Origin: Perkinsus marinus ATCC 50983
Lineage: Eukaryota > Perkinsozoa > Perkinsida > Perkinsidae
DNA: 64,000 nucleotides
Direction: 5' to 3'
NCBI RefSeq assembly: GCF_000006405.1
Contig: NW_003208655.1
Coordinates: 372,001-436,000, forward strand
Both the position numbers and the translations under genes were made by a program. The notes beneath the pieces are model-generated. The model was not told the origin of the DNA and searched no databases. It worked only from the letters and a program-made list of their open reading frames with translations. Of the stretch, positions 2,536 to 64,000 are shown one piece after another (within the stretch, counting starts at the first letter, position 1; each line of letters starts with the position of its first letter).

Positions 2536-3005
2536 TAATTTTTACAATATCTTATATAATATTTTTTTATAATAATTTTTATGATAATTTTTGTGATAAT
2601 TTTTACAATATTTTTTATAATAATTTTTAATTATTGTAAAATTATTCTTCAACTTACTCCTATAATGTAGGTACTAATTTAAGAAAACTCAATATTCAAA
2701 TAAAACTCTAATTGAAGAATAAAAACGAATATAACCGGAATGGAAATTAAAACAACGAGTACATTTCTTTTCGAAAAGATCGGCATAAAAGTAACGTCAA
2801 ATACAGTTATGCTTCACATTTGTAAAATTGTCATAAAAATTAATGTAAAAAGCATTGTAAAAATTATTGTAAAAATTATGATGAAAATCATGATAAAAAA
2901 TATCACAAACATTATCATGAAAATTATAATAAAAAATATCATAAAAAAAGTTGTAAAAATTATTGAGAAAATAGTAATATTGTAAAATTATTTTACATAT
3001 TATTA
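2520..3005. repeat. AT-rich minisatellite arranged as imperfect inverted halves
   Basis: 2530-2640 is made of variants of ATAATTTTTATGATAATTTT. 2818-2990 is made of the complementary type (AAAATTATGATGAAAATCAT). The two halves could fold back on each other. The 81-residue Ile/Lys-rich frame at 2740-2985 is translated repeat, not a gene. Confidence 0.7.
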
Positions 3006-6560: not shown

Positions 6561-8132
6561 AGAACAGGCCGGCTGGGAGGTGACATCTCCACCAGCCGAT
6601 AAGTGGTGGACATTAAAACTTGCATTCCATTCATCAAGGGCCCTAGTTTAAGAAGTAGGGGAGAAAATTTAAAATCTGAGGACAGCATCAAAATTTACGG
6701 TAGGCAATTAGAGGACAGCGCTCACGAAGTCCGAGTTCGATCCGCAGCAAGGGCAATTCTCCTATTAAAATTACCGCGCGCCACGAAATTGCAAAGTGTG
6801 CAAATTGACGTGCTGGAGGTATCGGCAGATTCGCAGTAAACAAGGACCTTCCGGGAGTGGTATGGCCATGTTGGGATTCCCTCTAAAATATAAACTATTT
6901 TCGGCTGTTGCAGTTTAAACAAAATAGTGTTGCAGTTCACACAACGTAGCACCCCGCACGGACCTGCTGAGTTTCAGACTTGAGACCTTGAGATTGCGAG
7001 GCGTGAATACTAACTAGTAGACTAATGTCTACTACATTGGTTTTTTGTTTATACGAAGTCATCAGGTTCCACTGTGATGACCGGCTCTACTGACCTATAT
7101 AATGTTCGGAGTATATGACTCAATATGAGTGAGGTCGGATACTCTCTGCCTGCCATCGACCCAAATCCACGAATGCTGATGGCAACTCCTACACTACCGC
7201 GATACGCAATGCTCAATAATAGTATCTGCATGTTCATCAATGGCACAACTGTTAAAATTCATTCTATCAAGATTTGAACTCGGATTACCGGAACGATATA
7301 CTGGAAGACTAACCGGTCGACTATATCACTTGTACAAACTCGAAATTCTCTGTTAGAGTCGCCGGATTTTCAGAATAAGCTGTATCTACTTGTAATCACT
7401 CGAGTGTCGGCCCCGAGTCCAGATCAGAGGCGAGAGAAGGTTCCATTAAGTTTCGCCTAATGGTGATAGCACTTTGTTGTTTCCAACGAAAGTGTACATT
7501 TGCGTTAGTAGTAGTCTAGAGGTGTAGCAGACGTTGAATCTCGTGGCGAGTGACGGAGCGTGCCTCAAAGTAGTTTTGAGGACAATCAGTATGGACGGCG
7601 GACCAAGAAGCGACGCACAGCAGCAGCAAAAAGAAGAGGTTATAATGGGGAGGGGGTTTTCTGTGCTGCATTTGGTGATGCCGGGGTATTTATATAGAAT
7701 AGATAGTATTATATACTCGGTAGTGCTACAGTAACTTTATCATATCTATTACTTATATTGTTTTTAAATGAGGCATTTTGATGGTTCACTATGGATAACG
7801 AACCTCCACTGAGTGGCTTCAAGTAAAGCGCATCGGAAAATCAAGAAAAGCGATGGCATCACTGATAAGGAAATCTAAGCTGGTTACAGCACGTACAGCT
7901 GAGTCTCTGACCGCGGAGTCCTTGTGGTTGGAGTATCATGGTTGTGTTAGATGCAGCGTCCTCGAGCTAATGGTAGAGTGAGAGCTTGGACGGTCGAAGA
8001 TGTTAGACGACTCTTCACCGGCGATGCAGCTAAGGAGGCTAGTGAGGCCCCGAAGCAAGGGAATCGAAAGGGTAGGAAGCCTCTCGGGAGCTAACGTGTC
8101 ACAATTCAATAGGTGTTGGTCGTGGGGCTGCG
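6561..8132. other. Intergenic region with an intron-type GC core
   Basis: 6767-6790 contains the recurrent core ACCGCGCGCCACGAAATT, and 6730-6750 has a tRNA B-box-like GAGTTCGATCC. A 66-residue frame at 7534-7734 contains a short Q run but no recognisable domain. 7936-8132 probably includes the 5' leader of the UBR gene, with a possible trans-splice acceptor AATTCAATAG ending at 8112. Confidence 0.35.
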
Positions 8133-17689: not shown

Positions 17690-17721
17690 AAAATTATGTC
17701 GCGCGCCACGAAATTATCTGG
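17690..17721 (-). repeat. Intron core motif A (context unclear)
   Basis: AATTATGTCGCGCGCCACG, followed by AAATTATC, matches the recurrent core in the antisense direction. Flanking exons could not be identified. Confidence 0.55.
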
Positions 17722-17886: not shown

Positions 17887-20187
17887 CCGGCGCTACTCGC
17901 TGCACTACGCGTTCCACTGCTCAACTCTTCTACACCCAAGCTCAACAGAAGGAACAACAACAACACGCATAATACTGTAAGGCGGCAAGACAGCCATACT
18001 AGTCTAAAGTCATCATCTTGGCAGGATAGGAGGAAACCGAGACCAGCAGAAAGAACTTTGTTAAGCGGGAGTAGTCCAGCAGGGGTTGTCGCCACCTCTA
18101 GGGTGTACTCAAGTCGGAATAGTAGCAGCTACACTAGTGTCACCAGCAGCTCGTTGAATAGTAGCGCATTCAACTCACTAGCAACAGTAGAGGAGTCCAA
18201 AGAGAACAGCATGCCTACTGTAACTACTACCGACCGCGTACAGGCTAGTAGCTCTGCAGGTGAGTATTGGTGGGATCTTCCGATTTCTAGTTAGTATTAG
18301 TTTCGATATCGTCACCGATCGGACGAGAATCGACATGTGCTGGTGGTGTTGATGGTATCACAACACCGCCTACTGATACTAGCAATGGAAATCCAGCCGG
18401 CGGAACTGGGAGGCTCAAGGTTTATCGAAGTAGTGCTCGGCGGCGGGCTTTGGTGGTACAGTACACCCAGTACAGGGGTAAACGTGCTTACACGGCACTT
18501 GGGTTTGGGGTTATAGCAATTGATAGCTTCGAAAGTGTATACCATGTTTAGTACTTACTGCACTGTGGCTGAGTGCATGGTATAGCACCCGAGGGACCTC
18601 CGGGAGTCGTACCTCTGATAGCCACACGATGCATTAGTTATGGGCGTACTGATCTTTGGAATACGAACTGTACGATAACTATCGTCTGCAATGGGGACTG
18701 TAATGACTGTGCGTAACGCATCGTTGGATATAGAACAGTGCTGGTTCTGACTCAGAAACGGAAAGTGGTGGAGGAACGAACGCGATGTCGCGAAGTTTTA
18801 CGGCACTTTATCATCGAAAGTAAGTTACCTAAGAGGTAGTCGGCATTCTCGTGATGCTAGTGATATTTTTAGTGCACCATTGAACGAGCTAGCGCTGATG
18901 AAATCATTTTTTGCCATGGAGAATCGACGCCTTCAAAGGGTAGTATCTGGAGTCACGCATGAAGTCTGGCACGATAGATTCACATGGGCCATAGAGGGAA
19001 CGTGTATGCACACTGTCTAGAAATCCCGAGAGTGGGAAATCTTTGAGAAAATTTGTATCCGTTTCCGCGTATCGTGAGGCTGACGTTGCTTCTGTTGAAG
19101 TGTAGATTGCTGAGTTACTCCTTCGTTGGTCAGGTTCTTGGTGGTCGAGCAAGAGCCCGTGGTAGTGGGGGTAAAGCCTTGAAGGTTACTGTGGTGTTTT
19201 TGGTCATACTGTTTATACTAACGCAGTTGGCGTTCATGTCGAGTACCAGTGATGAGAAAGATGTAATGTGATGATTTTTGGAATTCTCCACGATTTTCTG
19301 ATGGCTTTTCACGTTGTTTGGTGACACTGGATTGGCAGTATATGATGTCGCTGTTGTCAGGCTACGGACCTTATACATTCCTCATGGGTACTCGCCATCC
19401 TTATAATCGCTACTACAGTGGTATGCGGGGTCACTGTATACTCCTGTTATCAGACCCCTGAGCACGTAACGGGAAAGTTGGCCTTGGCTGTGTTGTATTT
19501 AGCGATGATGTGGTAATGAAGGTTCTGTTGCTATTTGGCTTGAGGGTGGCTTGAATAGGTACCTTTGGGTGTTCGACTATCAGGCAAGGCGACCGAGTTT
19601 ATTCTCTGATTTAACCTCAGGAGAGACGACAGTGATTGGTGAGTGCTTCGCTCCGCTAGAGATTGTGATTTTGTTTGACTTAGGTTGGTTTTTGGCCCTG
19701 GAGTTCATCATCTTTGTGGCGTACGTTATCACTCATTGGTTCTACCCGTTTATAGTACGACTGACGACGGTCTGGTGGGAGGAGGTGGTAACTGATCTCA
19801 GGTGTCCAAACTGGAGTTGTGGCCTACGGGGGCGAAGCTCTGGTTCCGATTCCGGCAAGTTGAGTCGCCACATAGAGATTCTGTGAAGTTTTCCTACCGC
19901 CCCAGTGGAATATTCGGTCGGCGATATATCTTCACTTATAGCGGCACTGTCGATAGGTTGGTGGATAATTTCGTGGCGCGCGGTAATTTTATTTCATCTT
20001 AGGGATGGATATCCGCATGGGTATGGGGTGTGGTCCGACGATTCGTACCATGGAGAATGCCTCCTGGGTCGATGGCGACACGGAGTGCCTGTCGGACCGT
20101 TCACATCCCGAGAACGAGGTGAGATTTCCAGTGGTGACAGGCTACTCTCTCTCCTTCTTGTTTTAACCCTAAGCGATACTAGTGTGT
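17887..20187 (+). CDS. Hypothetical membrane protein, multi-exon
   Basis: The first coding-looking block (17884-18294) is Ser/Thr/Asn-rich and low-complexity, ending ASSSAGEYWWDLP. Later blocks include SSARRRALVVQYTQYRGKR (near 18440), a hydrophobic segment VTVVFLVILFILTQLAFM (near 19180), a second hydrophobic stretch FDLGWFLALEFIIFVAYVI (near 19680) and FSYRPSGIFGRRYIFTYSG (near 19900). I infer an integral membrane protein with a long polar N-terminus, but the family is not recognised. Exon boundaries are guesses. An intron at about 19930-20002 contains the recurrent GC core. Confidence 0.35.
19965..19992 (+). repeat. Intron core motif A
   Basis: AATTTCGTGGCGCGCGGTAA lies just before a pyrimidine-rich ATTTTATTTCATCTTAG acceptor. 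It matches the cores in the ATP10, tomosyn and DRC1 introns. Confidence 0.65.
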
Positions 20188-20197
20188 GAATCCGCAT

Positions 20198-20615
20198 ATC
20201 TGAAGTTCTTATGGAGCTCTAAGTACTACAACGTAGATGTTTGAAGTAGTTTAGAACTCTATATTCGCCTATCTGAGGTTCGTACAGGGCTCAAAGTACT
20301 ATACCGTAAATACTTGAAGTAGTTCAGAACGCTATATTTGCCTATCTGAGGTTCGTGCAGAGCTCAAAGTACTATACCGTAAATACTTGAAGTAGTTCAG
20401 AACGCTATATTTGCCTATTTGAGGTTAGTACAGGGCTCAAAGTACTGTACCGTAAATACTTGAAGTAGTTCAGAACGCTATATTCGCCTATCTGAGGTTC
20501 GTACATGGCTCAAAGTATTATACCGTAAATCCTTGAAGTAGTCTAGAACTCCATATTGGCCTATCTGAGGTTCGTACAGGACTCAAAGTACTATACCGTA
20601 AATACTTGAAGTAGT
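20198..20615. repeat. Tandem repeat, 73-bp period, six copies
   Basis: Units beginning TATCTGAGGTTCGTACAGGG start at 20198, 20270, 20343, 20416, 20489 and 20562. The first unit is the most diverged and the last is truncated. The central word AAAGTACTATACCGTAAATA is conserved. There is no open frame through the array. Confidence 0.9.
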
Positions 20616-48500: not shown

Positions 48501-49465
48501 TTTTCCCCATTGTTATCAAACTCTGGGGAAGCTACCTTGTTCCCATAACTCTACTCACCTTCCCACCCATCTGTTGAATTACTGACTCGGAAATCCCCGT
48601 ACCTGTTATACGATATAATGGAGTTTCACCACCCTAGTGATATGAAAAACACATTTCACGACTACTACAGCACACTGCGAATATCGCGTTTTTCACCAAG
48701 TTTTACTCCACTTCACGTAAAACGGGTGAAACTCGAATATCGCGTTTACAATGTAACAATGGCTATGAACATGTGTTGTGATGAAAGCACCCGTTTGAGA
48801 CTGTGATGATAGCGACAACTTGTTCACTATAATAACACCCATTCGCATATCAGATCGTCGCGTACTGTAAACTAGCACCAACACTTCTTCCCTCCCACCT
48901 TTCCTCGCCGCCAACGCGTCGTCCAACAAAGCAGTAGTAGTATTAACTTCCTCTTCATCAGCATCAACGTCATTCGCCTCCTCTGCAAGTGGCAAACATG
49001 TATACCTAAACTGGCGAATTTCGTGGCGCGCGGTCAGCGATGATGAGAAGGGAGAACTGACCATAAAACTGCTAAGAATTCCGTAAGGGTGTTCTCGAAA
49101 ATGTGCTCATCAATGCAGATAGGCTTGACCAGCTGTGGAGGTGCTGGAGATCTCCCGGAGTCTGCCGCTTCAGAGAAAGATCCAACCTGAAATTGTGGTA
49201 TGAGTGCCGAAATATACGTTCGCTTTCAAAAATTATACAAATTTACACGCATAACGGTAAAAATGTACAGAAATCAACGAAAATTTCTCAAAATTTCCCT
49301 ATAATTTTCATATTTTCACCAACAAACGCAGTTGACCATATGCCCACCTCCCCATCATCATCATCATCCATGTTGCTGCTATGTGGCCGCGACAAAATAC
49401 GACCGTCATGAACCCGCACCTCCTCCATCTACAGAGAGTAATGCCGACACGAAGTGATCGGAGTG

Positions 49466-50534: not shown

Positions 50535-53095
50535 TCAGAAAAATATCCACTTTTTATGTTGTTTCTTATTCACGCCTCTCGCCAGCCTCAACATCTCTTC
50601 AGATTGTTCACTCATCTCAGCCGACTTCGCCTGAATACCCGCGAGCTTCTCCTGGTTGTTTGCGATCTGCGCCCGCGCACGCCCAAGAATATCTTTCGTA
50701 TCTTTCGCCGTTGATCCCACTGAAGTACTATCCTCCATCGAAACTCTCATCGAAACACCATTTTCAGAAGCTGCCTTCGCCCCCATCAGTTTATCCCTAA
50801 TGTGGCCGAAGGTACTGCTAGCAGTAGCGACCGCCCTACTAGCCGCTCTCTGACTAGCTTCTATCACAGCCCCCTGACGTATCTGCTCCTGCAGCCTCGA
50901 AGTGACCTCCATGGTGGACTCCAACACTTCTAATCGAGAGTGATACGCTCGCTGAGCTAGCACGACTTCAGCTTCATCATCCCTCGCCTCGTCAATAGTG
51001 AAAATCGAGATACTGACCCTAGACATTTGACTGTAAAACCGCAAGATTCGTCCACCAGTGGTAACCCAAACGAATATAGGATCCTCATCGGGTATTCCTC
51101 GACCAACAACCACACCATCTTCACATCGTATCAGTTCAACTACACCCTCCTCATTGGCAACTACTAAACATCGACCGAAACCCGTCCCAGCGTCCTCGAC
51201 AATTCGAGCCGCCACTATATCGCCTCCCTCACACGCCAAAACTGTCCACTTCTGCGATTCCACCAACCCAAAGCGGCGAACCGTTATCCCAGGGAATTGC
51301 GCAACGAGACCATCTACAGTAGCCAGGTCCACTTTAGGAGCCGCATTTGCAATGAGCAAACGTTGGTCGACTTGGACACGCCGACCGCTATCGGTCGTTA
51401 TGATGAGGTAGTTGCCGATCGCTTGAAGGGCATGAATGAGCTCGTCGGAGTCGTAGACCTTAGATTTCGTGGCGAGTGACAAAACCGAGCCATCATAATA
51501 GCCCGCGTAGATGGTACCAACGCTGAGATCAGAACAAAGGGCGGTGATAGGCTTATCGGAGGGTAAAGTGAAAAGGATGGAGACCTGTCGAGCTGAGTAG
51601 ATGTAACAACGCAGTCCATGCTGACCGCCACATAGGATCACTCCTTCCCATCTGCCGAGGTCCCAGGTTCGAATCTCAGTGGCGGCATCTTTACACAACT
51701 TCTTCAACACTTTCTCTGTTGCCACTCCCTTAGGCAACTCACACACCACACTTCGGCTCGTTGACCTCCAAGGACGCATCGAGAGCTCCCGAACGAACCC
51801 GAAAACTTCCAGCTGTCCGGTTTTGGCTTCCATCAACGTGATCAACTTTTCGCTCGCCCTGTCAAATTGCGCAGCAACAACTTCATAAGGTTCAGATGAG
51901 GTCCGATTGGCAGCTTCTGAATCGGTTGACCGGGCAATTTTCAGGATACCTACAAGTGGTAGCAATCACATCAACAACTACTTCTTCGCCCGACCGGTAG
52001 CCGCATCGAAGTGGAACTCGCCGAGTGAGGTCGCCACCGATATGATACCATCCCTCCGGAACATTATATCAAAAACGGTTTCGGCTTCTCGAGGGAAATC
52101 GATAGAAGTGCCATTAGGCATTTCCATCCACAACTGAGCAGCCGCAGATGGAGCAATAGCAAGCGAGGATTCGAACCTACGTCGTTCTCTGGATTCACCC
52201 AAACTGTCAGCCACGCGTTTGGTTGGAATTCGCAAGCAGCAATACAGCTAGCGCCGTGAAGGGCAGCGTTAATGCCGGCCTTTTGGTCAGTCAACCATCC
52301 TCTACTTGACGGGGAGTAGAATCGAACCGGGGACCTTTCGCATGATGAACCGACCATAATCCTACTAGATCACATCTTACTTTTCATTGCCGATCATCCA
52401 TATTGATCCCTCCTTATTAGAGGCTAAGACCGTGACCATGCCAGCACCCCCACTAGCATTATCCAAAACTAGAGTAGTCAGATAAGGCCGACCAGCGTCA
52501 CTCGCATCAACTACCTACAAAGGTGAGCAGCGAAATTGAAAAATACCAAACTCAACGAATAAGTTCCATAAGCTTGGCAGTGCGTGCTTGGGGTATAGCC
52601 TCACTCTTATTCAATCAAGATGTGTCTGCACACACGCAGGTCCACCGTGGCATCAACCAAAACGAACGGGAAAGACAACTGACTGATTTCAGAATAAAGC
52701 ACGCTGGAGAATCACTGATTTCCGCTTCGCTTCGCTCAAAATCAGAATCGACTTGATCTGTTTCAGATCATCCAATGAGAGAAAAAGCCACTCAGTTTTC
52801 TCATGTGCATGCGTGCGCAGCACTACTCGTTATATCCATTCAGACTGAAAACATGGCATTTGTATTCTACGCACTTTGACAGCTAAATCAATTTTATGCA
52901 TTAAAAATGACATCTGTGGGTTTCGAACCTGGGTATCCACTCATCGACGAAATTATGCAGCCGAGCAAAGACTCCCTCCTGCTCACTTTAACATTCCCTG
53001 TGGAAGTCCCCACTAGGCACATACCCGTCCTGCCAACCTGAGCCAACTTCACCACAGTCGACGTTTGGGAAATCTCTAAAGCGAACAATCTTCCC

Positions 53096-53380: not shown

Positions 53381-54140
53381 AACAACAATAACAACAATAA
53401 CAGCAATGACAACAATAACAACAATAGCAACAATAACAACAACAACAACAACAACAATAATAATATTAACAATAACAACAGCAACAACATCGCCACACAA
53501 CCCAGATAAACCTACCAACGACTATCGGCTCCGCCAGACCAGTAGAATCTTTCGCGTGCGCAAGATTCCAAACATAAACCACCTAAGCGACCATAGACGG
53601 TACCAAATAGAACGATCGGCTTACGTTAGCGACCGAAGCAATGACAACCCCTCTTCCTTCTAGGGCGAGTACTTCATGAACTTCTCCGGGAAAAGGTTGG
53701 CCCGGCAAAACCTGCATAACAAAAACTGCTTCGCTCCGCCCAAAATGAACGGCAGATCTCCTACAACATCCAGCTGGTCCGTATAAACCTTCAGGCCACC
53801 CCCTCGCAAAGGGAAGGCGACACATCCAAGTTCCCCATCGACTGCTGTACACTGGTAACTGACCAAAATATCGTCACCGCGCCACGAAATTATCAACTCA
53901 CATCCATTTATCGCATATCCCCACTCGAGCAATGGTGACCTCCTCCCTCATACCATCCCTTCCACCCTTTACCATCACATCCACTCCTGTTGAGGCACCC
54001 CCAAGTAAAACTTGAGACCCCTCCTCATCAGACAACACCAACGATGATGACGATGAACTACTCGAACTTCTTCCATCACAGGAAGACGATGACCTGCTTG
54101 AAAAGATACCATCACACATCCTATCATCACTCCAACGCAC
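50535..54140 (-). CDS. Tomosyn/Lgl-family WD40 protein with SNARE-like tail
   Basis: The 5' exon (from about 54140, start uncertain) is Ser-rich and ends VTIARVGICDKW. A 43-nt intron joins it in phase to YQCTAVDGELGCVAFPLRGG. Propeller-like exons follow: LAQVGRTGMCLVGTSTGNV, LTTLVLDNASGGAGMVTVLA, AWLTVW joined to LWMEMPNGTSIDFP, then a 476-residue frame with repeated strand units (ITALCSDLSVGTIYAGYYDG, LIITTDSGRRVQV, CLVVANEEGVVELI). Its last ~60 residues (DILGRARAQIANNQEKLAGI...MSEQSEEMLRLARG) align with the R-SNARE-like coiled coil of tomosyn. Lys is at the central zero-layer position instead of Arg. Tomosyn/Sro7 proteins bind Q-SNAREs and regulate exocytosis. Stop TGA is at 50537-50535, 69 bp upstream of the cyclase ATG. 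The alternative is a generic WD40 protein with a coiled coil. Confidence 0.6.
51652..51696 (+). repeat. Candidate 45-nt stop-free intron carrying an antisense tRNA-like B box
   Basis: On the gene (minus) strand it reads GTGTAAAGATGCC, then GATTCGAACCTGGGACCTC and GGCAG. Its length is a multiple of three with no stop, so the long frame reads through it. Splicing gives KKL joined to WEGVILCGGQHGL. Whether it is intron or coding cannot be settled here. Confidence 0.4.
52134..52198 (-). repeat. 65-nt tomosyn intron with tRNA-like B box
   Basis: Splicing GTGAATCCAGAG...GCTGCTCAG joins WLTVW to LWMEMPNG in phase 0. Inside is GTAGGTTCGAATCCTCGC, a perfect B-box sequence. Confidence 0.6.
52302..52380 (-). 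repeat. 79-nt tomosyn intron that is nearly tRNA-shaped
   Basis: The intron runs GTAAGATGTG to CAAGTAG. It has an A-box-like TGATCTAGTAGG, an anticodon-like loop ATCATGC (T33 then CAT) and a B box CCGGTTCGATTC at canonical spacing. The acceptor stem does not pair. It looks like a decayed initiator or elongator Met tRNA copy acting as an intron. Confidence 0.6.
52905..52986 (-). repeat. 5' part of a tomosyn intron with tRNA-like B box
   Basis: The intron begins GTGAGCAGGAGGG just after the GNVK codons. It contains ATAATTTCGTCGATGAG and then CCCAGGTTCGAAACCCACAG. The first word resembles motif A, and the second is a B box. Confidence 0.5.
53098..53485. repeat. (AAC)n-rich trinucleotide array in a tomosyn intron
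   Basis: About 385 bp of AAC/AAT/ACC units with internally duplicated sub-blocks (an AACAGCAATGACAACAATAA word recurs near 53292 and 53399). Poly-Leu, poly-Val and poly-Thr frames across it are artefacts. On the gene strand it is a TTG tract ending close to the acceptor of the next exon. Confidence 0.9.
53859..53901 (-). repeat. 43-nt tomosyn intron built around core motif A
   Basis: The gene strand starts with a perfect donor GTGAGT, then TGATAATTTCGTGGCGCGGT, GACGATATTTTG and GTCAG. Its removal joins two coding segments in phase. Confidence 0.75.
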
Positions 54141-54210
54141 CGCGAAGATTCCGCTACCGCTTCTACTGCAGCTCCTCCCGAGCCGGGGACTTTCCTAAAA
54201 GATACCACAA

Positions 54211-54336
54211 TGGAGTTTCACCCTAGTGATATGAAAAAACACCAGCGAAAAACATATTTCCCGACTACTACATACTGTGAATATCGCGTTTTTCACCGAG
54301 TTTTACGCCACTTCACGAAAAACGGGTGAAACTCCA
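54211..54336 (+). repeat. MITE family M1
   Basis: TGGAGTTTCACCCTAGTGAT to ACGGGTGAAACTCCA, with the interior GAATATCGCGTTTTTCACCG. Both terminal repeats are present. Confidence 0.85.
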
Positions 54337-54773: not shown

Positions 54774-56913
54774 TCATCGTTCATTTTTCTCGTGAATAAG
54801 TTGCCGCAATAACGGTAATGCTGTTCTCAACGTTTTCTCCGTCGGAAGCCCCACTGCATGCCACCTTATATAACCAAGTCGATCCACCATTAAAACTAAA
54901 AAGACGTTCTTGCTGCTGACAAAATCCGACTCTTGCATATGTGTGAACTCACCCACTGGTAGACCTGGATTATATAAATGCAATTTTGGTATCAAATCTC
55001 GTCTCCATTTTCCACGATAAACGTAGGTGTTCATCAGCTCATCTCGGCCTTCAACCTGAAATGCCCAAAAATATCTTGAGGTTCAACCACGTAAGATTCA
55101 AACCTGGTCCCGTAAAGTCAACTTCGTCAGAGGATGCGTCCTCCTGTTAATCCAACCCTCATGAAAATGCACCTACCAAGCCGACTCTCCGTCACGCGCC
55201 ACAAAATTATCACCATCACCTGCACCATTTGCGTCGTATCCTCTTTCCCCTCCAAAATCGGCCGCAAATTTTCCTTCCACATTCTAACTCCTGAGTACAG
55301 TGACGACAACGGCTGACCTGGGCGAAAAATTCCGGAAAAAAACCAAAAATTTTTCGACTCACCCGAAAATATATGCATAACCGTAATCTTTCCCTCCAGC
55401 TTGTTAAACAGCGTACACGGTTTAGCCGTAAAACGCCACGACTGACTCTGAGGCTGGTATATCTACGAAATAACAAAGGTGCGGTATTAACCTCATCCGT
55501 ACCATAAAATTTATCGATATAAANNNNNNNNNNNNNNNNNNNNNNNNNNNNNNNNNNNNNNNNNNNNNNNNNNNNNNNNNNNNNNNNNNNNNNNNNNNNN
55601 NNNNNNNNNNNNNNNNNNNNNNNACCCGTTTTACGTAAAGTGGCGTAATACTCTGTGAAAAACGCCATATTCGCGGTGATATGCAGTACTCGTTACACAT
55701 ATTTTCCACTACTATTTTTCATACCACTAGGGTGGTGAAACTCCATAAAAAACTCCCCCCTCACTACCGGGTCCACATACAGGTCCATAGGCCATCGGTA
55801 AGCAACTGATCTCGGTATAAGAACGTTCGTCCAATTGTATGCTGCCGTCTGCCCTTCATGATACGGTTCGATCTTCATACTACACGAGTACCTTACAACA
55901 CTAATAATATCTTCTAGATCTACCATAACTCGACCAACTTCGGTGACATATTTATCGGCTCGGCAAATCCCAACGATCGACGAACCGCATCTACTGCCAG
56001 TCCGAACGGTCCAACCTAATAGTAAAAATCATTGGCAAAAAAATACCACCCGCACCGCGAAGATTTCAAGATACTCCCCGAAAATCCCTATCGTCCAATT
56101 AAAGGGAAAAAAACCAAAAATCACAGCCCTCAAAAGTCAAAATCATGCAAATTTTCCGTCTATAAAAAAATTTTTCCACGAAAAAATCCCAAAAAAATAA
56201 AATCGACACTGTACGAATTTTACAGCAACATATCCAAAAATAATATTTTTTTCCAAAAATTCTTATTCTACTGCCCAACGCTCAACTTTACACACTAAAG
56301 AACTTCACGATTCTTCCACTATTTTCCAGAACCGATTCACGATTTCGCTCGCCCGACAAATCTTAATTTCACAGAACTATTCACGTGCTACGGAAGGCTT
56401 AAACGGCGATCAATTTTTACTGTATAAATTTCGTGCCGTTTTTCGTAACTGCGATATATATTCCCTATTACAGTTACTGAGAACGGTATGATGGGTGTGA
56501 AAGTTGCCAGAAAAATTGCCGATATTTACCATTTTTCCGACAAATTTCGATACGCAATGAAGTAAAACTAATAAATGTGGTATGAGATGAACGGTAGATG
56601 GTAAAAGCTTATTATTATACAATGGAGTTTCACCACCCTAGTGATATGGAAAACACCAGTGAAAAACGTATTTCACGACTACTGCGCACCACGAATATCG
56701 CATTTTCCTCCCAGTTTTACGCCACTTCACGTAAAACGGGTGGTGAGACTCCAATAGTACTCCAATTTCATTTTCACATACCACAAATTCAACCTCCCCG
56801 ACCACTACCATAGGCCTCCTGGCATCCCCCTCAGCCAAGACTGCCGCTTCTCGCGATGACCCTTTATAAAGGGAACTTCTTACAGCACTACCACCCGAAA
56901 TGTTAGACCACAT
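54774..56913 (-). CDS. ATP10-like mitochondrial ATP synthase assembly factor
   Basis: The last exon (55055-54774) encodes VEGRDELMNTYVYRGKWRRD...NVFLVLMVDRLGYIRWHAVGLPTEKT, the family's C-terminal V-D-x-x-x-x-IRW-x-x-x-G signature. Upstream exons join in phase through introns of 48 and 47 nt: VHFHEGWINRRTHPLTKLTL and GQPLSSLYSGVRMWKENLRP. Before that lies FTAKPCTLFNKLEGKITVMHIFS, the L-x-GK-x-T-V strand. ATP10 acts in mitochondria on subunit 6 of ATP synthase in yeast. Candidate N-terminal exons (55926-55760; MWSNISGG at 56913) are less certain. A 100-N gap and three MITE copies fall inside the locus. One intron carries motif A and the next a B-box-like sequence. Confidence 0.62.
55056..55103 (-). 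repeat. 48-nt ATP10 intron with tRNA-like B box
   Basis: Splicing joins LTLRDQ to VEGRDELMN in phase 0. The donor side reads CCAGGTTTGAATCTTACGTG, a one-mismatch B box straddling the exon end. Confidence 0.5.
55173..55219 (-). repeat. 47-nt ATP10 intron built around core motif A
   Basis: GTGATGGTGATAATTTTGTG, then GCGCGTGACGGAGAG and GGCTTGGTAG. It joins TTQMVQ to VHFHEGW in phase 0. Confidence 0.75.
55524..55623. other. Assembly gap (100 N)
   Basis: Exactly 100 Ns, the usual placeholder for a gap of unknown size. The right flank is the internal part of a MITE M1 copy, so the assembly probably broke in this repeat. Confidence 0.95.
55624..55746 (-). repeat. MITE family M1, abutting the gap
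   Basis: Inverted copy: ACCCGTTTTACGTAAAGTGG to CTAGGGTGGTGAAACTCCAT. One end is lost in the gap. Confidence 0.8.
56623..56754 (+). repeat. MITE family M1
   Basis: TGGAGTTTCACCACCCTAGT to AAACGGGTGGTGAGACTCCA. It lies within the ATP10 locus near its candidate first exon. Confidence 0.85.
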
Positions 56914-57893: not shown

Positions 57894-58013
57894 TGGAGTT
57901 TCACCACCAGCCGTGATATGAAAACACTAGTGAAAAACATATTTCACGACTACTACAGTATACCGCGAATACCGCGTTTTTCACCAAGTTTTACGCGGCA
58001 CTTCACGTAAACC
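57894..58013 (+). repeat. MITE family M1, 3' end missing
   Basis: TGGAGTTTCACCACCAGCCG to CACTTCACGTAAACC. The right terminal repeat is absent. Confidence 0.8.
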
Positions 58014-58240: not shown

Positions 58241-58267
58241 TTAATTTCATGGCGCGTGACAAAATTT
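58241..58267 (+). repeat. Intron core motif A, upstream of the first DRC1 exon
   Basis: TTAATTTCATGGCGCGTGAC precedes an AG about 15-30 nt before the first coding exon, so it may be in a 5' intron. Confidence 0.6.
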
Positions 58268-58303: not shown

Positions 58304-61300
58304 ATGACAATGGACGAAGTAATAGCGATCGTCGCCCGTACTGATGCTGATCTCATTGAGGAGGTCACCAACATCAAAGCTGAGGCGGATGACAGCGAAA
58401 ACAGCATAAGAATAGAGAATGAGAACGCGCGGATGGACAGGTACTGATTCTTGTGTGGATTCACAAAAATAAAAAAAATATAAACAAAAAAATAAAAATG
58501 TACAAGTCGAAATATGCACATGTTTACCGACGACGTGTGCTGGAAATTTTTGCGAATTCTCTTTTATTTCTGTACATTTCAAAGGGCCTTGGAGGGGATT
58601 TCAACTCGGGAGCAATTCTTCACATTTTCTTCCTCCACAAAATTATATTGTTACAATGGACAATCGAATTCAATGCCAACATTAACTTTCCAACGTTTCT
58701 AATGACCATTTCTAATAATAAGCTCGCTCTCTATCACAACTACTTCATCGTTGATAAAAATACTCGTATAATTTCGCAAAGTTTTTCTTTTTTTTTCTGT
58801 TTTGTCTGGCTATTCACGCCGGGAGAAGTCATTGGATCTGCGAAATTATCAGACCAAAAATGGAGCTTCACCGATGTGAAAAACCCGTATATTCGCACTA
58901 TACAGTAGTTGTGAAATATATATTTTTCACTAGTGTTTTTCATTTCACGGCTGGTGAAACTCCAATGGTCGTATCGCGTAACTAGATTTTCGACTAAAAA
59001 AAGGAAAATTCTCAACGCAACAATGGACTTTTGAAATGCTATGTATAGTATCGGGATCTTGCTGAAAGGTGGATAATAACTCCTCTGAAAAATGCTGACG
59101 AAAATCGGTAAATAAATTACATCTATTGTAAATCGAAACTTAGCAGCAAATATTCATTTTTCAACGACAGCAGTTCGTTATAATAGTTTTATTTTTTACC
59201 ATTTTTTCCACCACGCTCAATTGATATTTTTAAAAAAATTTTGAAAAAATTGCAAAAATTTTGCCGGAAAATATCGTTTTTTCCAGATATGAAGCACTTC
59301 AAATAGAAGCGGTTACATCTAATAGGAAGAACGCAGCAGTTGATATGAAGTGGGCAGACTTCGATCGGATTAAAATTGCCCGAGTAGTATTAAAAATGTC
59401 CTCGCTAGGAATCGTACCCGGGACCTCCTCAGGAACTAGCCAAGGAGTTGGAAATGCAGACCAAAGCCTGTCAAGCTATTATCGATTCTAAAGTGAGGGA
59501 GATTTTTGTCACGCGCCATGAAATTATTCGTCCTTAGGATCGCCGAATTCGAGAATTTCTGAGTGAACTTGAAGACAAAAACTACTCATACGTGAAAGCT
59601 ATGGAGCGGGCAGAGCAAGACGTAATGCACTCTGGAAAAAATTGTTGTTGTAGTAGTAGAAACAGTGTTGGAGTAGGAATATCTGTTCGCCTTGCTCAGC
59701 TGCTGAGCTTAGGAGTTCCGAAAGCTGATAGGAGTCTGCCGAGAAGAATGCAGAAATTTATGAAATTTTCCCAAACTTTTCTCGGAATTTTTTCCACACA
59801 CTGGGTAGTGGTATGGAATAAAATCAAGTAAAACACGATGTATGGAAATTTTTGGTTTTTTGTTGCAACGAAATTCCCTACATTGAAAACTCTAACAAAG
59901 AGAATGAAATTTCGATCATCATTTTTGTGAAATTTCCAAAATTTCCGGAAAAAATCAGTCGTGAATTTTTTTATTGCCGAGAAATCAGTCGATAATTTTG
60001 GGGCGCGTGACGGTTGGCTATAGGTTGGGAAAATGTCGAAGTTGATAACAGCGAATATAAGGAAGCAACGAGACGTCCATAGAAAACAGCTGGAATCTTT
60101 CGAACGTCTTTTGGAGAGAGAAAGAGTTGATCTTTTAGACAAGCAAAAAAGAGAAATGGATGATCTCTTTGAGAAAAGGCGACAAGTAATATCATGTTTT
60201 TAATGGAGTTCCACTAACGGTGATATGAAAAAAAAACACGGGAGTTTTACGCGTTTTACGCGAAGCGGCGATATTCGCGGTGATATGCAGTAGTTGTGGA
60301 ATATATTTTCCAGTAGTGCTTTTTCATATCACTAGGGTGAAAACGCGATTAGGAATGAAAAAAACATATTTCACATTTCACTTTGCGGAAAACAATTTTC
60401 GTTGCCGAAAAATATGCGAAAATTTTTATGGAGTATTACGCCACTTCACGTTAACTTGTGTGAAGGCGTCGGGTTAGCTGCTGCGATAACGGAATTGCAT
60501 TTTCTACGTTGGAGTTTCACTTGTGAGATTAAAAACAGTAGTGAAAAACATACTTCACAGCTAACGTATAGTGAATAACGCGTAAATTACGTCATGTGTC
60601 TTTTTTACGGAAAATTTGCCGAGAAATTTCAATTTACTTTACATCGCGTTTTTCACGTGGAAAAGTTCCAATGATGAGAAATACGGACTATGTCGGGTGG
60701 TTTTTCTTAGAGGGAAGAAAATGAATTTTTCGACCAACGACAGGAACGTGAAAAAGGATTCCAGCAGAGGACCGACGAGTTATTGCATCGGGTAGGACAA
60801 GGGGAGAAAAGTGGGTAAAAAAATCCGTAATTTTTTTCATCAAATTTTCGAAAAAATAACTTGCTTAGTCCGCGTGTTATTGCCCATTTTACTTGAAAAA
60901 AATTCGATGATTTTTTTGGTAAAAAAATTTGAAAAAATTTCGCAAACTAGGCCTTCTCGGAGAAGGGGCGGAGCTCGGCATCCGGGTTCGATTCCCATGC
61001 CTGGCATTTTTCTGCAAAAATATGTTTTTTGCACGGAAATCTACATGGTCCGGGCGGAACCCTAATTTCGTATTTTTCCTAGTATCCCCAGAGCGAGAGC
61101 TATCGAATGGTGTATAGCATGTGATCATAACCTCTCTAGATCGAGCTGGATAATTTGTACGCACGCACGCACGCACAAAGTGTTAGTAAAGTGAGAGAAT
61201 ACGCTCCGCTCGCTTCGCTCGCTCCGCAATTTGAGTTTTTATGTTTCTATGGAATTAGCAGTAATGAATTCGTGATCGTTCCGAGATGAAGTCGGGCGTT

Positions 61301-64000
61301 TTCACTCAGTGTAAAATCGTTGAAATTTTTTCGTAAAAAAATAAATTTTCCGTTCCGAAAATATTTTTCTCATGTATTAATTTCCTTTCGAAAATTAATT
61401 TTTCCGTGTATTTTTTTCCGTTTCGAAAAAATTTTTTCCCAAGTCAGGACCTCGACGAGTTCAATAAAGCGAAGATATCGTTGGAAAATTCGATAAACGA
61501 ATTGGAGGAGCATTCTGAGCGAACAATGGCAACTTATCAGTTAAATAAAGAGAAATTGGATTACAATTTGCAGGTGGGAAATCTTGGAATCTTGAGAGCT
61601 CTTGCATTTCCTCAACGAAATGTGTTGGTGATATTCATGGAAAATGCTCTTTGGTTTTCGTATGTCAACTTTTACAGTGGAGTTTTAGGCGTGATATGAT
61701 GAAAAACATATTTCACGTTTCACGTTGAAGTGCGTGAAAAATGGATTTTATTTTTCCGGTTGGTGAAATTGAGTTTTAGCCGTTATGTGGAAAACGCTAG
61801 TGAAAAAAACAGATTTCACATTTGTGAATATTACGTTTTTTGCAAGGGAAAATTACGCCACTTGTCGTAAAATGGTTGAAACTCTCGAGCTCAGCTGAAG
61901 GAAGCGAACATATATTCCTAAACGGTGATAATGGAGTTTCACCACCCTAGTGATATGAAAAACACATTCCACGACTACTACAGATATCGCGTTTTTCATG
62001 GAGTTTTACGCGCCACTTCACGTAAAACGGGTCGTGCAACTTCAATTTTGTCGGCAGGTTCTCGCAGAAAGAAATAAGGAGCATACCGCTATTGAAGCCG
62101 CGTATAAAATGAAGTTGGGGAAAATGCGAAATGCTAAGCAGAAGATATCTCAAAAGTGATTTTATGTATTTCTACGGTGAATTGTTATATTGCTGACAGT
62201 GAATTTCTGGAAAAAATAGGAACACGAAACGAATAATCGTTCGACTGCGCAGGGAAATTATGTGAGAAATCGGATTTTTTTACCCGTTATTAATCGTCGG
62301 TATGATGTAAAAGGGTAAATTTCGCGTTTTATCGTTATTGACACGCGTGAGCGAATAAACGTTCGGGTTAATTTAGAAAAATTTTAATCACCGGAAAATT
62401 CACTATGGAGTCTGTCAACTTGTACGTGAGGGGAATGGCAATCGTCTTGAAGGTTTGCCGAGATGGAGGCGACTCTGCGGAAGGAGAACACTGACTTGAC
62501 TGAAGACCTCGACAGACTAATGCAACAATATCGGCAAGTATTGGAGAAGACGCAAACTTTCCAAGAACAGGATGAGAAAAAATTTTCGGAAATTTGGGCG
62601 AATAACGAGAGGGAAGTCAAAAGTTTGGTGGAAAAGGTCTTGGATGGTGATAGGATTATACATGAACAGGTGAGATTGAAATTATGAAATCGATCACTGG
62701 GGCGCGCGCGGTTGTTGTAGGGCTTAGGGCGGCTGGAATATAAAAAGAAGTGGGTGATTTTTTCCTGCTATATCGAAAAAAAGGGGGAAATTTTTTGACG
62801 TCGAAATTCGAAATTGATGGAAAATTTAACCCATGTGCATTTGGTTTTCTTTTCTTGTTAGTTGTTGGGTCTCGATTGGGCAGTGCCAAGCGTGGAGCAA
62901 ATGCAGCAGGAGATAGAGGTTATGAGCGAGGCAGGGACGGTGACGGGGAAGGCCTCTACTGCGCTGCTGAGCAGTGAAAGCGGTCGTACTGCTAGTTCAG
63001 GAGGAGGAAGATTTTCGGTAAGAAATTTCATGGGAATCGTAAAGGTTGTGTTTTTTTCGATTTTTTTTCGGGAAATTTTTCGGGTAATTTTCCAGGTTCG
63101 GCTCGCGAATGTTTTATCAAAGTTTCACCCGTTTTATGTGAAGTGGCGTAATACTCAGCGAAAAACGCGAAATTTGCGGTGATATGCAGTAGTCGTGAAA
63201 TATGTTATTTCATCGTTGTTTTCATATCACTAGGGTGAAACTCTTATTTTTTTTAAGTTTTTCCGAATTTTCTGTGCGATTTTCTTTCATGCTGGACTCG
63301 TGAATATTTAATTCTTTTTGCATTTTTTTGCAATTTTTTGCGATTTTTTTTGCATTTTTTGTCAATTTTAGGGTAGCAAAGTGAAAGCAGTGATGGATTG
63401 GATTCGCGAAGAGGCCGCATTCTTACTCGACATCAACGTGAAGGAGCAATGCAAGGACCTGCCACCTGAGCACAGGGCTGTTGTTGAGGTAAAAAAAATT
63501 TCCTGATTTTTTTCCACAAAATATAAATTTTCAGATTGATGCGATTCTACGGGCGATTGGTTGTGATGATCAACGCGACATAGACTTGCTAGTATCCCAA
63601 TTTTTCCGCGGCCAAGATGAAGACGATGAGACGTGTTTGGTGGAAGCAGACGACATTTTGAAATTAATAACGGAATTTATGGTAGAAAAGGAAAATCTCA
63701 AATTGGCTGAAGTGGCACCCGATAAGTATGTTGGGGCGAAAATTTGAAAAATTTTTGGTAAAATTATTTTAATTAGGAAAAAGAAAGGCCAGAAGGGTGG
63801 AGAGAAAACTGATGCGGAAAAAGCAGCCCGAAGGCGTCGAGAAGAGCGGAAGTATCTTGAGGTTCGGTATGAAAGATACGGATCATGCCCGATTAGGTTC
63901 TGGGAGAGAATTGGCCATGCGTTGCCGTCAATGAATGTTCGCCTCCATGAAGCTGTGGAGAGCTGTCTTAATCGACAGCTGAAGTTGCTGAACTTACGTG
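58304..64000 (+). CDS. DRC1: Dynein regulatory complex subunit 1 (partial at window end)
   Basis: Thirteen exons join in phase: 58304-58440, 59287-59383, 59433-59492, 59538-59621, 60024-60185, 60711-60792, 61448-61573, 62058-62155, 62453-62669, 62862-63017, 63372-63488, 63535-63725 and 63777-64000. Diagnostic segments are VTNIKAEADDSEN, DRRIREFLSELEDKNYSYVK, ATYQLNKEKLDYNLQVLAER, KKFSEIWANNEREVKSLVEK, DGDRIIHEQLLGLDW and RFWERIGHALPS near the C-terminus. Most of the protein is coiled coil. DRC1 is a core subunit of the nexin-dynein regulatory complex that links axonemal doublets, so the organism builds motile cilia. The first exon may not be the true start. The last residues lie beyond the window. 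Introns range from 45 nt to over 800 nt, the long ones filled by MITEs and R2 copies. Confidence 0.88.
58505..58585 (+). repeat. R2 fragment in a DRC1 intron
   Basis: AATATGCACATGTTTACCGA, GTGTGCTGG and TTTATTTCTGTACATTTC match the left half of R2. Confidence 0.55.
58861..58964 (+). repeat. MITE family M1, diverged
   Basis: TGGAGCTTCACCGATGTGAA to GGCTGGTGAAACTCCA. Terminal repeats are intact, the interior is shortened. DRC1 intron. Confidence 0.75.
59384..59432 (-). repeat. 49-nt DRC1 intron with antisense B-box-like sequence
   Basis: Splicing joins FDRIKIAR to ELAKELEMQTK in phase. The gene strand contains GGAATCGTACCCGGGACCTC, which resembles GATTCGAACCTGGGACCTC in the tomosyn candidate intron. 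Confidence 0.6.
59493..59537 (-). repeat. 45-nt DRC1 intron built around core motif A
   Basis: GTGAGGGAGATTTTT, then GTCACGCGCCATGAAATTAT, then TCGTCCTTAG. It joins IIDSK to DRRIREFL exactly where the DRC1 family is continuous. Confidence 0.85.
59664..59805 (-). repeat. ~170-bp dispersed repeat R2
   Basis: It has CAGTGTTGGAGTAGGAATAT, TCAGCTGCTGAGCTTAGGAG and GCAGAAATTTATGAAATTTT. DRC1 intron. Confidence 0.65.
59991..60012 (+). repeat. Intron core motif A at a DRC1 intron 3' end
   Basis: GATAATTTTGGGGCGCGTGA lies 10 nt before the CTATAG acceptor of the exon beginning VGKMSKLITANIRK. Confidence 0.65.
60204..60342 (+). repeat. MITE family M1, rearranged
   Basis: TGGAGTTCCACTAACGGTGA at the left; CGCGGTGATATGCAGTAGTT and ATATCACTAGGGTGAAA at the right. 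It looks like two half-elements in opposite orientation. DRC1 intron. Confidence 0.65.
60511..60670 (+). repeat. MITE family M1, long variant
   Basis: TGGAGTTTCACTTGTGAGAT to TTTCACGTGGAAAAGTTCCA. The interior has extra A/T-rich sequence. DRC1 intron. Confidence 0.65.
60955..61015 (+). repeat. tRNA-like remnant in a DRC1 intron
   Basis: CTAGGCC pairs in six of seven positions with TGCCTGG. CCGGGTTCGATTCCC is a good B box. The spacing is about 12 nt too short for a full cloverleaf. Confidence 0.45.
61678..61768 (+). repeat. MITE family M1, diverged
   Basis: TGGAGTTTTAGGCGTGATAT to CGGTTGGTGAAATT. It is directly followed by another copy. DRC1 intron. Confidence 0.6.
61769..61884 (+). repeat. 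MITE family M1, diverged
   Basis: TTGAGTTTTAGCCGTTATGT to CGTAAAATGGTTGAAACTC. Adjacent to the previous copy. DRC1 intron. Confidence 0.65.
61875..61925 (+). repeat. R2 fragment in a DRC1 intron
   Basis: GAGCTCAGCTGAAGGAAGCG and AACATATATTCCTAAA match the right end of R2, wedged between two MITE copies. Confidence 0.6.
61932..62045 (+). repeat. MITE family M1, close to a DRC1 exon
   Basis: TGGAGTTTCACCACCCTAGT to GTAAAACGGGTCGTGCAACT. It ends 12 nt before the acceptor of the exon starting VLAERNKEH, so it supplies most of the intron 3' end. Confidence 0.8.
63120..63243 (-). repeat. MITE family M1
   Basis: AAGTTTCACCCGTTTTATGT to ATATCACTAGGGTGAAACTC, inverted relative to the others. DRC1 intron. 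Confidence 0.8.

What the first reader, a model, noticed from the sequence alone, without database searches (positions are those of the whole stretch)
53859..53901. Candidate introner family: a ~20-nt GC core shared by unrelated tiny introns
GTCACGCGCCACGAAATTA or its complement sits inside introns at homology-supported junctions in tomosyn (53859-53901, 43 nt), ATP10 (55173-55219, 47 nt) and DRC1 (59493-59537, 45 nt). It is also at intron ends near 19965, 49016 and 59991, and in less clear settings at 6767, 17690 and 58241. The introns are otherwise different and occur in both orientations of the core. A core repeated in unrelated introns, with coding sequence seamless around it, is what intron-generating elements (introners) leave behind.
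Basis: partly seen in the sequence, partly recalled or inferred. Interest (0 to 1): 0.88.

Follow-up and report, generated by a model that had tools for sequence, protein, structure and literature searches.

The report
Intron-dwelling 20-base DNA motif
A 20-base DNA word is scattered in about 1,500 places in the genome of a Perkinsus-like marine parasite, often inside tiny introns and in either direction, and it stays intact while the DNA around it changes, which suggests a working DNA signal more than the footprint of a jumping intron.

Summary
Genome-wide there are 1,598 matches to a degenerate form against 46 for the reversed control. Intron seams are backed by homologues for tomosyn and DRC1, PRP16, 4 of 13 introns of a DBP5 gene and 2 of 5 called introns of another gene. 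The ATP10 seam is weak. Against an implanted-motif control, about 45% of 93 sites (30-51% over six thresholds) lie in introns of 36-80 nt, versus 3-7% of random positions. A donor word precedes both orientations in excess genome-wide.

The introner reading is only partly supported. Similarity stops at about 20 nt and does not run to both splice sites, the published criterion. Lengths are those of ordinary introns. All 11 allelic sites that could be aligned carry the motif on both copies. The motif changes less than its flanks in alleles, paralogues and arrays.

Best explanation: a selectively maintained, strand-indifferent DNA element, probably a protein-binding site, hosted preferentially by introns. 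An ancient, eroded introner origin is not excluded.

The parts
53859..53901 (-). 43-nt tomosyn intron; motif 53873-53891 antisense to the gene (one-base longer spacer form)
   Evidence: Seam matches P. olseni protein P0002; splice score 12.3
55173..55219 (-). 47-nt intron of an ATP10-like gene; motif 55191-55208 antisense to the gene
   Evidence: Splice score 9.8; Pfam ATP-synt_10 spans the seam only at E 0.066, below cut-off
59493..59537 (+). 45-nt DRC1 intron; motif 59508-59525 in sense
   Evidence: PDB 7ju4 DRC1 aligned across the seam, E 8e-6; Pfam NYD-SP28 8e-13
19967..19984 (-). motif copy, ACCGCG variant, in a candidate 42- or 46-nt intron of a + strand gene
   Evidence: Splice score 8.6; gene prediction; no homologue checked
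49017..49034 (-). motif copy, ACCGCG variant, near the 3' end of a candidate 56-nt - strand intron in the tomosyn region; could also be coding
   Evidence: Splice score 10.2; not resolved by a homologue
51463..51480 (-). motif-like copy (GTCACT variant, 1 mismatch in the 12-mer) inside a tomosyn coding exon
   Evidence: ORF 50535-51965 aligns to P. olseni through this point, SLATKS vs SLATKF
7537..7554 (-). degenerate motif copy in a candidate 52-nt + strand intron
   Evidence: Splice score 6.6, weak
6773..6790 (+). motif copy, ACCGCG variant, context unresolved
17698..17715 (+). motif copy, GTCGCG variant, context unresolved
58243..58260 (-). motif copy, context unresolved
59994..60011 (-). 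motif copy with 1 mismatch in the 12-mer; candidate 63-nt intron of a + strand gene, weak
   Evidence: Splice score 6.2

Best explanation
The core is a bipartite, about 20-bp, strand-indifferent DNA element: a short left module (mostly GTCAC, GTCGC, ACCGC, TTCAC or TTCGC), a spacer of 1-2 bases, then CGCCACGAAATT (with CG also TG or CA at one point). It is held in place by selection. It is most likely the binding site of a sequence-specific DNA-binding protein. Copies are tolerated, and used, inside introns, where they do not touch the protein, more often than in other non-coding DNA. Shown: copy number, anatomy, intron enrichment, both orientations, discrete variants, and lower change than in the flanks. 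Inferred: that selection is the cause, that a protein binds it, and that binding acts on chromatin or transcription of the host gene.
For: Information per position drops from 1.3-2.1 bits in the core to below 0.4 within a base or two on both sides (69 sites chosen for up to 2 mismatches). Left-module variants are discrete, not a smear of decay (first 100 places listed of 512 and 513). Both orientations are used: the donor word GTGAG lies upstream of antisense copies 66 times and downstream 22, and upstream of sense copies 48 times and downstream 15 (haplotype copies included; binomial p 3e-6 and 4e-5). Close neighbours do not share orientation (7 of 13) or variant (5 of 13; 34% expected), so they do not look like local copies (first 100 of 1,598 places). 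Allelic pairs differ at 2 of 200 motif bases versus 28 of 523 flank bases, p 0.004, or 2 of 128 versus 20 of 331, p 0.03, without the four sites chosen for exact cores on both alleles. In paralogue pairs L019/L029 (two sites) and L007/L047 the core is kept (one difference in all) while the adjoining intron side has diverged; L011/L038 share only the core and 26 bases on one side. In three tandem arrays pairwise core differences are 1.5, 4.2 and 4.2% versus 7.7, 18 and 37% in spacers.
Against: No protein or activity has been identified. Binding sites are not usually concentrated in 50-nt introns. Paralogues and arrays were found through their cores, so their conservation is partly ascertained, and the allelic test rests on 2 changes. 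About 20 near-invariant bases is more than a factor would need for about 1,550 sites in 54 Mb. L011/L038 keep some flank with the core.
Confidence: 0.5

Rival explanations
1. Ancient introner family: an intron-creating element once inserted in both orientations, and only the core has been retained while the rest of each intron eroded.
For: Among introns up to 80 nt, core introns are hardly longer than others (medians 48.5-51 vs 48-49; 50 vs 49), so the core does not look added to ready-made introns. Intron enrichment is about 7-fold. In antisense the core often supplies the 5' splice site itself, GTAATTTCGTGG. Several introns of one gene carry it (4 of 13 in DBP5).
Against: Similarity does not reach both splice sites. 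Lengths are not constant. No clear target duplication. No empty allele among 11 sites. Erosion alone does not explain why the core is conserved.
Confidence: 0.27
2. A very short, recently active mobile or templated insertion of about 20 bp that lands anywhere and survives best in introns and intergenic DNA.
For: Both orientations; many near-perfect copies; discrete variants could be subfamilies; coding depletion (at intron penalty -3, 5 of 84 hits, or 10 of 84 with cores masked, against 32% of bases).
Against: Insertion into existing introns would lengthen them by about 20 nt, which is not seen. Flanks have diverged more than cores. No presence/absence polymorphism in 11 allelic sites.
Confidence: 0.12
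3. An RNA-level splicing signal of the intron.
For: Strong location in introns; varied but often 5'-proximal placement.
Against: Donor words precede both orientations at similar rates (66 vs 48, p 0.11), and homologue-backed introns exist in both, which an RNA motif would not explain; arrays and a coding copy exist as well.
Confidence: 0.06

Closest known systems
Introners / introner-like elements (Gozashti et al. 2022, PMC9860276, passages seen)
   Same: Shared sequence in unrelated introns, large copy number, aquatic protist, element may supply the 5' splice site
   Different: Introner similarity extends to near both splice boundaries; here only about 20 nt are shared, lengths vary, and no clear target duplication or empty site was seen. 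The word Perkinsus does not occur in that paper's main text
Amoebophrya introners (PMC7789003, passages seen)
   Same: Related alveolate; repeated introns
   Different: Those are defined among non-canonical introns and carry inverted repeats of 8-20 nt and direct repeats of 3-5 nt at the ends; here introns are GT-AG by model, with one internal core
C. elegans PATCs (PMC7725773, search listing only; intron location recalled)
   Same: Non-coding DNA signal that acts on expression of the gene carrying it
   Different: PATCs are periodic A/T clusters, not a fixed 20-bp word
Long bipartite protein-binding sites such as CTCF, REST or yeast Abf1 (recalled, no call)
   Same: About 20 bp or bipartite, orientation-free, dispersed; GTCACnnnnnACG fits the recalled Abf1 consensus RTCRYnnnnnACG
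   Different: No such protein is known here and the fit may be chance; those sites are not known to me to be concentrated in tiny introns

Membership tests
[quoted passage not shown]
   Outside the ~20-nt core no position exceeds 0.4 bits except the C/T before it, over 69 sites, intronic and other; non-core parts of 43 candidate core introns share no 8-mer in more than 3 introns
Introner (PMC9860276) | Copies in introns of unrelated genes | tested here: met
   Tomosyn, DRC1, PRP16, DBP5 and a conserved Perkinsus protein
Introner (PMC9860276) | Target-site duplication and/or terminal inverted repeats (present in many but not all families) | tested here: inconclusive
   In-register repeat 2.7 vs 2.1 nt, biased by selecting high splice scores; no terminal inverted repeat follows from the single core
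Introner (PMC9860276) | Recent insertion: presence/absence between alleles, isolates or paralogues | tested here: not met
   11 of 11 sites with an aligned allele carry the motif on both, checked both ways; one further site had no aligned partner. Four sites in three paralogue pairs carry it on both, but those pairs were chosen by the core. Other isolates not available
Introner (PMC9860276) | Spliced out as an intron | tested here: inconclusive
   Protein homologues run through seams; no RNA data
Protein-binding DNA motif | Short block, sharp edges, orientation-free, allowed variants at fixed positions | tested here: met
Protein-binding DNA motif | Conserved relative to flanks | tested here: met
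   with the ascertainment caveats given
Protein-binding DNA motif | Bound by a protein | not testable with these tools
   no binding data

The most novel reading that the evidence does not exclude
This genome carries a new class of intron-resident element: a strand-indifferent double-stranded DNA signal of about 20 bp, in roughly one in a hundred short introns by my estimate and in several introns of some genes, kept by selection and using introns as its main home. Its introns may even have been born with it, which would join intron gain and gene regulation in one element.
Probability: 0.3. Interest if true: 0.85.

Novelty: new variant of a known kind. Interest (0 to 1): 0.63.

Why it matters
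Short introns are usually taken to be passive once their splice signals are set aside. Some 1,500 copies of one conserved, direction-free 20-bp word, about half of them packed into introns of about 50 nt, would mean that introns can host a DNA-level signal system in a close relative of dinoflagellates, where transcriptional control is poorly understood. It also gives a clean test case for telling introners from functional intron motifs.

Tried and rejected
tRNA introns: two sites (L044, L046) looked like tRNA arms beside the core; ARAGORN found no tRNA gene in 11 loci, and I judge the neighbours to be tRNA-derived repeats. A longer element with the core as terminal repeat: little flank information and no fixed inverted pairing (neighbours 7 of 13 in the same orientation). 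Local tandem copying inside genes: neighbour variants match no more than by chance. Spliced-leader relation: SL sequences as printed in PMC9399869 (passages) do not resemble the core by eye. Gene models: the first run ended in an error after training, the next was strict and left 63 of 84 hits unlabelled. Over five settings intron calls ran from 15 to 55 of 84 hits (14 to 47 with cores masked) and coding calls from 3 to 6 (8 to 15 masked), with 25-36% of bases called coding. I therefore used the implant control. Print: six words of the core in the held library, 0 papers; intron-motif-gain wording, 0 papers; Perkinsus with promoter, motif, genome and intergenic, 20 papers, 12 listed, listing seen only.

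Counts left out: L005 (overlap) was dropped; L005, L043, L048, L032, L034 (overlap or allelic) and L049-L051 (arrays) before the 93-site count. The loci were chosen because they hold exact cores, from the first 100 of 761 places.

Full report
What the sequence is. The window lies in a 54.46-Mb genome of 347 contigs. A tomosyn exon matches Perkinsus olseni at 64% over 70% of the query. A DBP5 query gives P. olseni at 87% over half of the query and P. chesapeaki at 64%. Another gene matches P. marinus at 79%. So this is a Perkinsus or close relative and, by these figures, probably none of those three species. Several contig pairs are 94-96% identical over kilobases and look like haplotypes.

The observation. 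The core is present as reported. Eight window matches with up to 3 mismatches compare with 0.01 in shuffles. Allowing the left-module variants, there are 11 copies. Genome-wide the 19-mer with up to 2 mismatches occurs 761 times with 0 control hits; the 12-mer CGCCACGAAATT 794 times with 0; a degenerate 19-mer with up to 2 mismatches 1,598 times against 46. Haplotype contigs inflate these counts.

Anatomy. In 69 distinct sites from the fetched loci and the window, information is 1.3-2.1 bits per base over the core. Outside it, only the C/T just before it reaches 0.98 bits; every other position is below 0.4. These sites were chosen for up to 2 mismatches, so the sharpness inside the core is partly by selection, but the flat flanks are not. 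Open-position searches, of which the first 100 places are listed, show that the left side comes in a few forms: GTCACG, GTCACT, GTCGCG, ACCGCG, TTCACG, TTCGCG, and forms with one more spacer base (for the loci); a few listed places fit none of them. The CG of CCACGAAA can be TG or CA.

Introns. A home-made gene model put 15 to 55 of 84 hits in introns depending on its setting, 14 to 47 with the cores masked; coding calls were 3 to 6, or 8 to 15 masked, while 25-36% of bases were called coding. Because that is unstable, I scored each of 93 sites for an enclosing GT-AG intron of 36-80 nt and compared it with the core implanted at 3,000 random places and 267 times in predicted introns. The estimates at six thresholds are 0.51, 0.45, 0.48, 0.46, 0.40 and 0.30 of sites in such introns (bootstrap limits together 0.18-0.70), against 0.03-0.07 of random places. 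Genome-wide, the donor word GTGAG within about 30 bases upstream exceeds the same distance downstream in both orientations: 66 vs 22 antisense, 48 vs 15 sense.

Homology-resolved cases. Aligning a P. olseni protein to L025 gives a DBP5 gene with 13 GT-AG introns; four carry the motif (46, 72, 190 and 47 nt), three antisense and one sense. No listed copy lies in its exons, and a fifth copy lies about 60 bases past the stop. A P. marinus protein aligned to L020 gives five called introns, two adjoining ones probably being one; two of 53 and 47 nt carry the motif with exact seams, and a third, imperfect copy lies upstream of the aligned start. PRP16 in L006 (sense, 124 nt), tomosyn and DRC1 add three. 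ATP10 is plausible only.

Conservation. In four haplotype pairs, 11 motif sites have an aligned partner and all 11 are present on both, whichever allele is asked; one site of L034 had no aligned partner. Motif bases differ at 2 of 200 and flanks at 28 of 523. Leaving out four sites selected as exact on both alleles, 2 of 128 against 20 of 331. In paralogue pairs L019/L029 (two sites) and L007/L047 the core is kept, with one difference, while the adjoining intron side is scarcely alignable; L011/L038 share the core and 26 bases on one side and may not be gene paralogues. These pairs were found among exact-core loci, so the identity of the cores is ascertained, but its survival beside diverged sequence is not. 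Three tandem arrays show the core changing less than the spacers (pairwise counts, not independent).

Against a recent introner. Similarity does not reach both splice sites, the criterion used in PMC9860276. Core introns have ordinary lengths (10-90 percentile 45-61 nt, others 41-65). Direct repeats at the ends are slightly longer than in other introns (2.7 vs 2.1 nt) but the sample was picked on splice scores. In favour of an old introner origin: lengths suggest that the core was not added to finished introns, and antisense copies often bring their own 5' splice site.

Clustering. Of 95 listed sites (the first 100 of 1,598 places, one array of five removed), 24 lie within 2.5 kb of another against about 8% expected from a minimum span, yet neighbours agree in orientation in 7 of 13 pairs and in variant in 5 of 13. 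So some genes collect the motif, but not by copying from next door.

Reading. The combination of sharp edges, free orientation, permitted variants, and resistance to change fits a protein-binding DNA element best. Why introns are favoured is not explained. The role (chromatin, transcription, silencing escape) is inference, and the binding protein is unknown.

The allele test was run both ways, masked gene-model counts, threshold ranges and list caps were added, the strand of the candidate intron at 59994 and the distance past the DBP5 stop were corrected, and the L011/L038 caveat was added.

Noticed in passing
window 48617-48734, 54207-54334, 55624-55746, 56616-56743, 57931-58011, 60268-60342, 61930-62032, 63121-63243: A dispersed repeat of about 120 nt in eight copies on both strands, also in many fetched loci; looks like a small non-autonomous element.
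   Followed up: no
window 20190-20615: Tandem repeat with a period of about 73 bases near the motif at 19967.
   Followed up: no
L049 (C126), L050 (C43), L051 (C104): Minisatellite-like arrays with periods 58-59, mostly about 42, and 45-64 nt, each unit carrying the motif or a near copy; C34 ends in copies of its 12-mer about 1,526 bases apart.
   Followed up: partly
window 51463-51480: A motif-like sequence inside a tomosyn coding exon, encoding SLATKS; P. olseni has SLATKF there, which the motif could also encode.
   Followed up: partly
L023, L044, L046: tRNA-like arms (GGTTCGA...CC) in non-coding DNA, probably a tRNA-derived repeat; no tRNA gene was found in L044 or L046 (L023 not scanned).
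   Followed up: no
C52/C69, C13/C79, C45/C103: Contig pairs 94-96% identical over kilobases: the assembly holds both haplotypes in places.
   Followed up: partly
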